Of a stretch of DNA of 50,490 bases, positions 143 to 1,272 are shown in pieces (the stretch's first letter is position 1; every line of letters starts with the position of its first letter). Both the position numbers and the translations under genes were made by a program. Where the stretch lies: the NCBI GenBank assembly GCA_001001485.1, contig LCKO01000007.1, forward strand, positions 1-50,490, given 5' to 3'. Source of the DNA: Candidatus Collierbacteria bacterium GW2011_GWB2_45_17. GTDB lineage: Bacteria > Patescibacteriota > Microgenomatia > UBA1400 > MFAQ01. The notes under the pieces are model-generated. The model saw nothing but the letters and a program-made list of their open reading frames with translations. It made no database searches and had not been told where the DNA came from.

Positions 143-736
143 ATGATAAAAACATTTCCGTTTACATTAGATTCCTTACCTTACGCTTACGACGCTCTCG
201 AGCCGGTGATTGATAAAGAGACGATGGAAATCCATCACGACAAGCATCACCAGGCTTACACCGATAATTTGAATAAGGCAGCGGAGGCAAATGTTGAACT
301 GCAAACGAAAGGATTGGAAGATCTATTGGGTTCGGGCGTGCCGGTGGTGAAAAATAATGCCGGTGGAGTTTGGAATCATGACTTTTTCTGGGAGAGCATG
401 ACTACTCCCGGTGTCAGTCAAATAGAAAACTCTTTGAAGGTGGAAATAGAAAAAGCATTTGCGAGTGTTGAGGAGTTTATGAGTAAGTTTGAGGCGGCGG
501 CCATGGGAAGATTTGGCAGTGGTTGGGCTTGGCTAGTCAAGAATAAGGTCGGTGGGCTTGAAATTATGTCGACTGCCAATCAAGATAATCCTTTAGTTGA
601 CGGTTTGACACCTTTACTGGCGATCGATGTTTGGGAGCATGCTTATTACCTAAAATACAAGAACAAAAGAGTCGATTATGTCAAAGCCTGGTGGCAGGTG
701 GTTAACTGGGATAAGGTGGAGGAGAGGCTTCTTTAG
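143..736 (+). CDS. sodA: Superoxide dismutase, Mn/Fe family (Mn-type signature)
   Basis: This 197-aa protein should convert superoxide to hydrogen peroxide and oxygen in the cytoplasm. The four metal ligands of the family are visible: His31 in the HHDKHHQAY helix, His79 in GGVWNHDFFW, and Asp162 and His166 in DVWEHAYYLKY. The active-site glutamine is Gln147 in STANQDNPL, and the helix-3 position is Gly (NNAGGVWNH). That is the Mn-type arrangement rather than the Fe-type one, although cambialistic enzymes cannot be excluded. I chose ATG 143 because the family begins just before the FTLDSLPYAYDALEP segment; the in-frame ATG at 86 would add 19 non-homologous residues. No Shine-Dalgarno is visible; a TATACT lies at 121-126. 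The stop codon abuts the 3' end of a tRNA-Leu on the opposite strand. Confidence 0.95.
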   Translation: MIKTFPFTLDSLPYAYDALEPVIDKETMEIHHDKHHQAYTDNLNKAAEANVELQTKGLEDLLGSGVPVVKNNAGGVWNHDFFWESMTTPGVSQIENSLKVEIEKAFASVEEFMSKFEAAAMGRFGSGWAWLVKNKVGGLEIMSTANQDNPLVDGLTPLLAIDVWEHAYYLKYKNKRVDYVKAWWQVVNWDKVEERLL

Positions 737-819
737 TGCCGAGAGAGGGGATCGAACCCTCACGGGATTGCTCCCACAGGTTTTTGAGACCTGAGCGTAT
801 ACCATTCCGCCATCTCGGC
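737..819 (-). tRNA. tRNA-Leu (anticodon CAA)
   Basis: On the minus strand GCCGAGA (819-813) pairs with TCTCGGC (744-738), with discriminator A at 737. The anticodon stem CAGGT/ACCTG encloses the loop CTCAAAA, giving anticodon CAA, which reads UUG. A long variable arm (GGGAGCAATCCC) confirms a class II tRNA, and the T loop is TTCGATC. CCA is not encoded, because the next bases belong to the sodA stop codon. Parts of its 5' half recur in the two elements at 864-1183. Confidence 0.95.
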
Positions 820-863
820 AACCACTATTATCTATTTTATCGTTATTCTGGGAGTTTTACACA

Positions 864-1008
864 GGTTTTTGAGCGTCCTCGTCCTGACTCGGACATTTCG
901 CCTGGCTGTAGGCTCAACCTTAGCGTATACCATTAGGCCGCTTCTCAGCAGAGCTAAGTGTCGAAGTTAGTTTTCGTCGGAGACGAAATAACCTTCGACC
1001 ATCTCGGC
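864..1008 (-). repeat. tRNA-Leu-derived structured element, copy 1
   Basis: On the minus strand this 145-bp element starts like the neighbouring tRNA-Leu(CAA) (GCCGAGATGG), keeps its D-arm segment ATGGTATACGC and its anticodon-loop segment CTCAAAAACC, but lacks the variable arm, T arm and 3' acceptor strand. About 60 bp holding two hairpins is inserted after the acceptor/D junction (978-1000 region) and about 45 bp of hairpin sequence at the 5' side of the anticodon loop. It is not a functional tRNA as it stands. It may be a decayed tRNA carrying palindromic insertions, or a structured RNA built from a tRNA. Confidence 0.7.
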
Positions 1009-1038
1009 TAACAATGTAATTTTACCTCAATTTAAATT

Positions 1039-1183
1039 GGTTTTTGAGCGCCCTCGTACTGACTCGGGCATTTCGCCTGACTGTGGGCTCAACCTTAGCG
1101 TATACCATTAGGCCGCTTCTCAGCAGAGCTAAGTGTCGAAGTTAGTTTTCGTCGGAGACGAAATAACCTTCGACCATCTCGGC
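1039..1183 (-). repeat. tRNA-Leu-derived structured element, copy 2
   Basis: This is a second 145-bp copy with the same layout as copy 1, repeated with a 175-bp period. The D-arm-side insert is identical and forms a long hairpin (TTTCGTC tcc GACGAAA with flanking GTTA/TAAC and TCGAA/TTCGA). In the anticodon-side insert the two copies differ at five positions. Two of these, C1051 and G1068, pair with each other and replace the T876-A893 pair of copy 1, so the stem is preserved. Confidence 0.7.
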
Positions 1184-1210
1184 AACAGAGTAATTTTACA
1201 GCATTACTAC

Positions 1211-1253
1211 AGGGCCAGGCCTTAGAGGTCTCCAATCTTCAAGGCCTGGCCCT
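1211..1253. repeat. Palindromic repeat family A, copy 1
   Basis: Inverted arms AGGGCCAGGCCTT and AAGGCCTGGCCCT enclose a loop of about 17 bp. The same arms occur at 2873, 4886 and 5709. This copy lies between the tRNA-derived elements and the terminator of the minus-strand 55-aa gene. There is no poly-T run directly after the arms, so it is not a textbook intrinsic terminator. Confidence 0.9.
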
Positions 1254-1272
1254 GGGGGGACTTTTTCGGCAC

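What the first reader, a model, noticed from the sequence alone, without database searches (positions are those of the whole stretch)
864..1183. Two tandem tRNA-Leu-derived elements with hairpin insertions and a compensatory base change
Both 145-bp copies keep the 5' half of the adjacent tRNA-Leu(CAA) (acceptor 5' strand, D arm, anticodon loop) but carry about 60 bp and 45 bp of hairpin-forming inserts and lack the T arm and 3' acceptor strand. In the anticodon-side insert, GTCC/GGAC in copy 1 becomes GCCC/GGGC in copy 2: T876-A893 is replaced by C1051-G1068. That preserves pairing and suggests the fold is under selection. The elements could be a new structured RNA, a decoy of tRNA-Leu, or tRNAs colonised by palindromic mobile repeats.
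Basis: partly seen in the sequence, partly recalled or inferred. Interest (0 to 1): 0.68.

Follow-up and report, generated by a model that had tools for sequence, protein, structure and literature searches.

The report
Conserved half-tRNA elements beside tRNA-Leu
In a group of tiny-genome bacteria (Candidatus Collierbacteria), a leucine tRNA gene is preceded by partial copies of itself that keep the front end but replace the back with a conserved folded stretch, so these look like preserved RNA elements and not decaying tRNA copies, although what they do is not known.

Summary
On the minus strand, two 145-nt copies (1039-1183, 864-1008) precede tRNA-Leu(CAA) (736-819). The D-arm insert is a dispersed palindromic repeat; in G008 an unrelated palindrome sits at the same junction. 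The anticodon-side part is old and conserved. Three same-genus genomes (G003, G006, G008) hold one copy each, always directly upstream of tRNA-Leu(CAA). Together they span the deepest rpoB split of the genus, where rpoB fourfold sites are saturated. The 22-25 nt tRNA part is identical in all. The rest keeps P1 (invariant), GCGAARU and hairpin P2, with compensatory U-A/C-G changes at two pairs. All four loci keep a tRNA-type -10 box nine nt before the outermost copy. No relatives were found outside the genus. Decay is therefore unlikely; transcription and function are unproven. Wider pattern: other tRNAs in the order also have upstream 5'-end copies with hairpins, and RtT-like elements lie downstream of many tRNAs and end in a copy of that tRNA's 3' tail. 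Best reading: a duplicated tRNA 5' half, colonised by palindromes, and at tRNA-Leu(CAA) recruited as a structured leader or decoy RNA.

The parts
1039..1183 (-). element copy 2 (outermost, 145 nt)
864..1008 (-). element copy 1 (145 nt)
736..819 (-). intact tRNA-Leu(CAA)
1174..1183 (-). copy 2: tRNA nt 1-10 (acceptor 5' strand)
1110..1173 (-). copy 2: D-arm insert, palindromic repeat B (TTAGCTCTGCTGAGAAGC family)
1098..1109 (-). copy 2: rest of D arm, AATGGTATACGC
1087..1091 (-). copy 2: P1 5' strand TGAGC
1050..1069 (-). copy 2: hairpin P2, GCCC(GA)GU..AC(GA)GGGC
1039..1049 (-). copy 2: GCTCAAAAACC, P1 3' strand; tRNA anticodon loop and stem sequence
999..1008 (-). copy 1: tRNA nt 1-10
935..998 (-). 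copy 1: D-arm insert, palindromic repeat B
923..934 (-). copy 1: rest of D arm, AATGGTATACGC
912..916 (-). copy 1: P1 5' strand TGAGC
875..894 (-). copy 1: hairpin P2, GTCC(GA)GT..AC(GA)GGAC
864..874 (-). copy 1: GCTCAAAAACC
1193..1198 (-). -10 box TAAAAT 9 nt before copy 2
   Evidence: same geometry upstream of the element in G003, G006 and G008
1019..1024 (-). -10 box TAAAAT 10 nt before copy 1
834..839 (-). candidate -10 box TAAAAT before tRNA-Leu(CAA)

Best explanation
A partial copy of the tRNA-Leu(CAA) gene (promoter plus the first ~25-31 nt and a piece of the anticodon loop) lies directly upstream of the intact gene. In this genus it has been kept by selection as a separate structured element. 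Shown: homology in four species, identical tRNA part, conserved insert with two compensatory pairs, tRNA-type -10 box at constant distance, no intact tRNA fold. Inferred: it is transcribed from that promoter, alone or as a leader of the pre-tRNA, as an RNA with free acceptor 5' strand, D hairpin and a P1/P2 hairpin. Most likely mechanism, not shown (about 0.25): a leader or decoy that acts on tRNA-Leu supply by presenting the tRNA's own 5' half and anticodon-loop sequence to a tRNA-Leu-handling factor, or by competing for the tRNA's 3' acceptor strand. The D-arm palindromes are later insertions, tolerated because they fall in the linker between acceptor strand and D stem.
For: Homologues always directly upstream of tRNA-Leu(CAA) in G003, G006 and G008 (named records). 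The rpoB tree puts holders on both sides of the deepest split (aa identity 0.88), while rpoB fourfold sites are only 40-50% identical between holders, i.e. saturated. Against that, the tRNA part is 22/22-25/25 identical and copy 1 vs G006 is 58/59 in the rest, although the variable arms of the adjacent real tRNAs differ. Two compensatory pairs; 100% of cells paired against 29-55% when partners are slid. TANAAT nine nt before the outermost copy in all four loci. Two unrelated palindromes inserted at the same linker in G000 and G008.
Against: Only five sequences from one genus. P1 never varies, so it gives no covariation support. Folding energies are weak. Element lost or absent in G001, G002, G004 and G007, so it is dispensable. 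No transcript data. Predicted pairing of the copy's 5' strand with the real tRNA's 3' strand (P about 0.98) also appears when the insert is shuffled (40/40), so it is not specific evidence for a competition mechanism. Gene conversion from the neighbouring tRNA could keep the tRNA part identical.
Confidence: 0.6

Rival explanations
1. Non-functional partial tandem duplication of the tRNA gene, decaying and colonised by palindromic repeats.
For: Palindromic repeats do insert in such copies. Other tRNAs have comparable 5' copies with unrelated hairpins: Arg(gcg) in G000 against an empty site in G005, Leu(cag) and Ser(gct) in G002, Pro and Arg in G030. Several genus members lack the Leu element.
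Against: Conservation at saturated neutral divergence across the genus, with compensatory changes. Copy 1 is 58/59 identical to G006 outside the tRNA part.
Confidence: 0.2
2. A DNA element: recombination or attachment site, or remnant of a small mobile element that used the tRNA 5' part as target. The 25-bp direct repeats would be its ends, and the fold would matter as single-stranded DNA.
For: Direct repeats of the tRNA 5' part flank the extra DNA. Tandem copies in G000. G007 looks like a precise empty site next to G008. Recurrent 5' and 3' end copies at many tRNAs.
Against: No integrase, transposase or cargo between the repeats. The same location is kept over the whole genus. Integron attC boxes are not conserved (GTTGAGC in some copies, GCTGAGC in others). 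A maintained promoter is not explained.
Confidence: 0.17
3. An intron-bearing, split or permuted tRNA-Leu whose parts are joined after transcription.
For: The insert sits at the anticodon loop; the 5' half is complete.
Against: No T arm or 3' acceptor strand in any of the five copies; an intact tRNA-Leu(CAA) always follows; Rfam tRNA model does not match. No permuted 3' half lies directly upstream (sequence).
Confidence: 0.02

Closest known systems
RtT RNA (Rfam RF00391; E. coli tyrT repeats, from memory about 178 bp, carrying the tRNA-Tyr 3' end)
   Same: Structured repeat unit of similar length beside a tRNA gene that embeds a copy of one end of that tRNA; can be tandem.
   Different: RtT copies the tRNA 3' tail and lies downstream; the window element copies the 5' half, lies upstream and carries its own promoter. 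No RtT match in the window. The genus's downstream A-type elements are the RtT-like ones (best 24.4 bits, below the gathering score of 45).
tRNA-precursor-derived regulatory RNAs, e.g. the 3' external transcribed spacer of leuZ in E. coli (PMC6191717 names it; its sponge role is from memory)
   Same: A spacer of a tRNA-Leu transcription unit acting as RNA.
   Different: That is a 3' spacer without tRNA mimicry; here a 5' element mimics the tRNA.
REP/MITE-type palindromic repeats
   Same: The D-arm inserts are dispersed palindromes.
   Different: They account only for the D-arm insert, not the conserved anticodon-side part.

Membership tests
tRNA gene | complete cloverleaf with T arm and closed acceptor stem | tested here: not met
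RtT RNA (RF00391) | match to the covariance model, tRNA 3' tail copy, downstream of a tRNA | tested here: not met
   No RF00391 match in the window; the element copies the 5' half and lies upstream
Structured RNA under selection | base pairs preserved by compensatory changes among homologues | tested here: met
   2 of 11 pairs with double changes and 100% of cells paired, but only 5 sequences; 75/500 shuffles reach 2 such pairs and 12/500 reach the covariation score
Structured RNA under selection | transcribed | not testable with these tools
   only promoter-like boxes seen
Dispersed palindromic repeat (D-arm insert only) | same palindrome at unrelated loci | tested here: met
   5 copies in G005 and 2 in G013; the G008 insert also in G006 and G007
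Integron attC site | conserved R boxes GTTRRRY / RYYYAAC | tested here: not met
   GTTGAGC in G000 and G006 but GCTGAGC in G003 and G008; GCTCAAA instead of RYYYAAC

The most novel reading that the evidence does not exclude
In this bacterial order tRNA genes are bracketed by two classes of 'end-copy' elements: upstream ones with promoter and the tRNA's own 5' quarter, and downstream ones with a conserved core plus the tRNA's own 3' tail. They would be a tRNA-specific regulatory or mobile system acting on tRNA maturation. The window element would be the founding conserved member of the 5' class.
Probability: 0.2. Interest if true: 0.78.

Novelty: new variant of a known kind. Interest (0 to 1): 0.52.

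Why it matters
Elements carrying tRNA 3' ends (RtT) have been known in enterobacteria for decades with little understanding. A mirror-image 5' class, with one member conserved across a genus, plus many RtT-like 3' elements in Patescibacteria, gives comparative material to ask whether such end copies regulate tRNA maturation or are footprints of mobile palindromes. It also warns that small genomes keep non-coding tRNA-derived DNA under selection.

Tried and rejected
Leader peptide in the insert: reading frames are not conserved (one-nt length change and amino-acid changes in G008 and G003; sequence). Split or anticodon-intron tRNA: no T arm or 3' strand. Integron attC: boxes not conserved. Phage or plasmid origin: no matches. 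The single viral-contig hit and the non-Collierbacteria genome-contig hits are chance (covariance model about 21 bits at most). Competition for the tRNA 3' strand as evidence: shuffled inserts behave the same. Common family with the downstream A-type elements: model R3 does not match the window element.

Full report
Observation. The window starts a contig (C7) of a 0.89-Mb genome. On the minus strand the order is copy 2 (1183 to 1039), copy 1 (1008 to 864), then tRNA-Leu(CAA) (819 to 736). Each copy is 145 nt. They differ at five positions, all in the anticodon-side part. Standard tools see only the real tRNA. They are the only two copies in the genome.

Two inserts, two histories. A search of relatives and printing of the hits split the element. 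In G006 and G003 the element lacks the D-arm insert: GCCGAGATGGCGGAATGGTATACGC followed by the anticodon-side part. The D-arm insert of the window belongs to a dispersed palindrome, with five copies in G005 and two in G013, for example at the 3' end of what reads as a valyl-tRNA synthetase gene. In G008 a different palindrome, also found elsewhere in G006 and G007, sits at the same junction between nt 10 and the D stem. So the linker between acceptor strand and D hairpin accepts palindromes, while the D hairpin itself is retained.

Conservation. Non-holders with a tRNA-Leu(CAA) locus are G001, G002, G004 and G007; G005 (77% complete) gave no tRNA-Leu(CAA). On an rpoB tree, midpoint-rooted, holders fall on both sides of the root; one ancestral gain with losses, or transfer, is needed. 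Fourfold sites of rpoB are 40-50% identical between holders, so neutral sequence would not be alignable. Yet the tRNA part is identical in all, copy 1 and G006 share 58 of 59 other positions, and G008 keeps 38-42 of 59. The real tRNAs next to them differ in the variable arm. This is the main argument for purifying selection.

Structure. Conserved plan: D stem; P1 UGAGC/GCUCA, which pairs new sequence with a copy of the anticodon loop CUCAAAAACC; a GCGAARU linker; P2 GYCC(GA)GU..AC(GA)GGRC. P2 alternates UA/CG at one pair and UA/CG at the inner pair (G008 has GCGAAAGC with a GNRA loop). All 55 pair cells are standard, against 29-55% for slid partners. With five sequences the shuffle control is modest (12/500 for the covariation score, 75/500 for the number of double-changed pairs), and P1 never varies. 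Thermodynamic support is weak.

Expression signals. Upstream of the outermost element in all four loci is TAAAAT or TATAAT exactly nine nt before GCCGAG; the same spacing precedes tRNA-Leu(CAA) in G002, G004 and G007, which lack the element. In G000, G003 and G006 a further TAAAAT precedes the next unit. G008 and G007 share upstream flank: in G007 it leads into the tRNA, in G008 into the element. The element therefore sits where the tRNA's own promoter is. Transcription is inferred, not shown.

Distribution. Covariance models and patterns found the element nowhere else: 88 genomes of the order, 374 of the class, 380 of the phylum, 84,980-species contigs by pattern, viral contigs, phages and plasmids.

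Wider pattern. Following a lead from the flanks, tRNA genes of the order were checked for copies of their own ends. Upstream copies that start at tRNA nt 1 occur at Arg(gcg) in G000 (17 nt plus two hairpins; empty site in G005), Ser(gct) and Leu(cag) in G002, Arg(tct) in G014, and Pro(tgg) in G030 of another family; a copy at Arg(tct) in G030 has hairpins inside its D arm, and a shorter 13-nt copy occurs at Ser(gga) in G014. Where extended, the copies end near the D stem and carry hairpins, but their inserts are mostly unrelated to each other. Downstream, a conserved 'A-type' element (12-sequence alignment, five pairs with double changes, 0/500 shuffles reach the covariation score) is found 2-11 times per matching genome in this genus and in one family relative (G014). 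Of 28 places, 23 lie within 250 nt downstream of a tRNA, mostly 45-61 nt, and 19 carry at least 10 nt of that tRNA's own 3' tail (a few places are listed twice through overlapping loci). In G002, 7 of 45 tRNAs have a 3' copy and 2 a 5' copy, against about 0 for other-tRNA controls. G036 has 3' copies with other cores; G017 has none. The architecture resembles RtT (weak model match). G008 tRNA-Leu(CAA) and G002 tRNA-Leu(cag) are flanked by both types. The A-type and the window element are not one family by model.

Mechanism. The simplest history is a partial tandem duplication (promoter plus 5' part) that leaves a working tRNA downstream, followed by hairpin gain. Arg(gcg) in G000 looks like a young example. 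For tRNA-Leu(CAA) the product became conserved. The most likely role is a leader or decoy RNA presenting the tRNA's 5' half. A fold of the joint transcript pairs the copy's 5' strand with the real tRNA's 3' strand, but a shuffle control shows this is generic, so this mechanism stays a guess.

Verdict. Real, conserved, probably an RNA element; a 5' mirror of RtT-like tRNA-end repeats; function open.

Noticed in passing
L084, L086, L089, L094, L105 (1366-1454, minus), L126 (2750-2833), L132-L161: A-type structured elements 45-61 nt downstream of many different tRNAs, each ending in a copy of that tRNA's 3' tail; RtT-like, strong covariation, found only in this genus and one family relative.
   Followed up: partly
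G000:C9:11454-11547 (L126 2612-2706): tRNA-Arg(CCT)-like gene with a 20-bp perfect palindrome CCTGCCTGCCGGCAGGCAGG in the D arm, followed by an A-type element.
   Followed up: partly
L118 1414-1500 (G000:C4, upstream of tRNA-Arg(gcg)): Second 5'-copy element in the same genome: promoter, GAGTCCGTAGCTCAGTT, two hairpins, then the intact tRNA; empty site in G005.
   Followed up: partly
L029 (G030), L151 and L134 (G014), L169 and L199 (G002): Further 5'-end copies of tRNA-Pro, -Arg, -Ser and -Leu(cag) upstream of the intact genes, with hairpins.
   Followed up: partly
L007 1480-1545, L008 1420-1595: Palindrome family B at the 3' end of what reads as a valyl-tRNA synthetase gene, tandem in G005.
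   Followed up: no
window 1210-1254: Perfect 14-bp inverted repeat with a 17-nt loop just upstream of copy 2, between the element and a small ORF.
   Followed up: no
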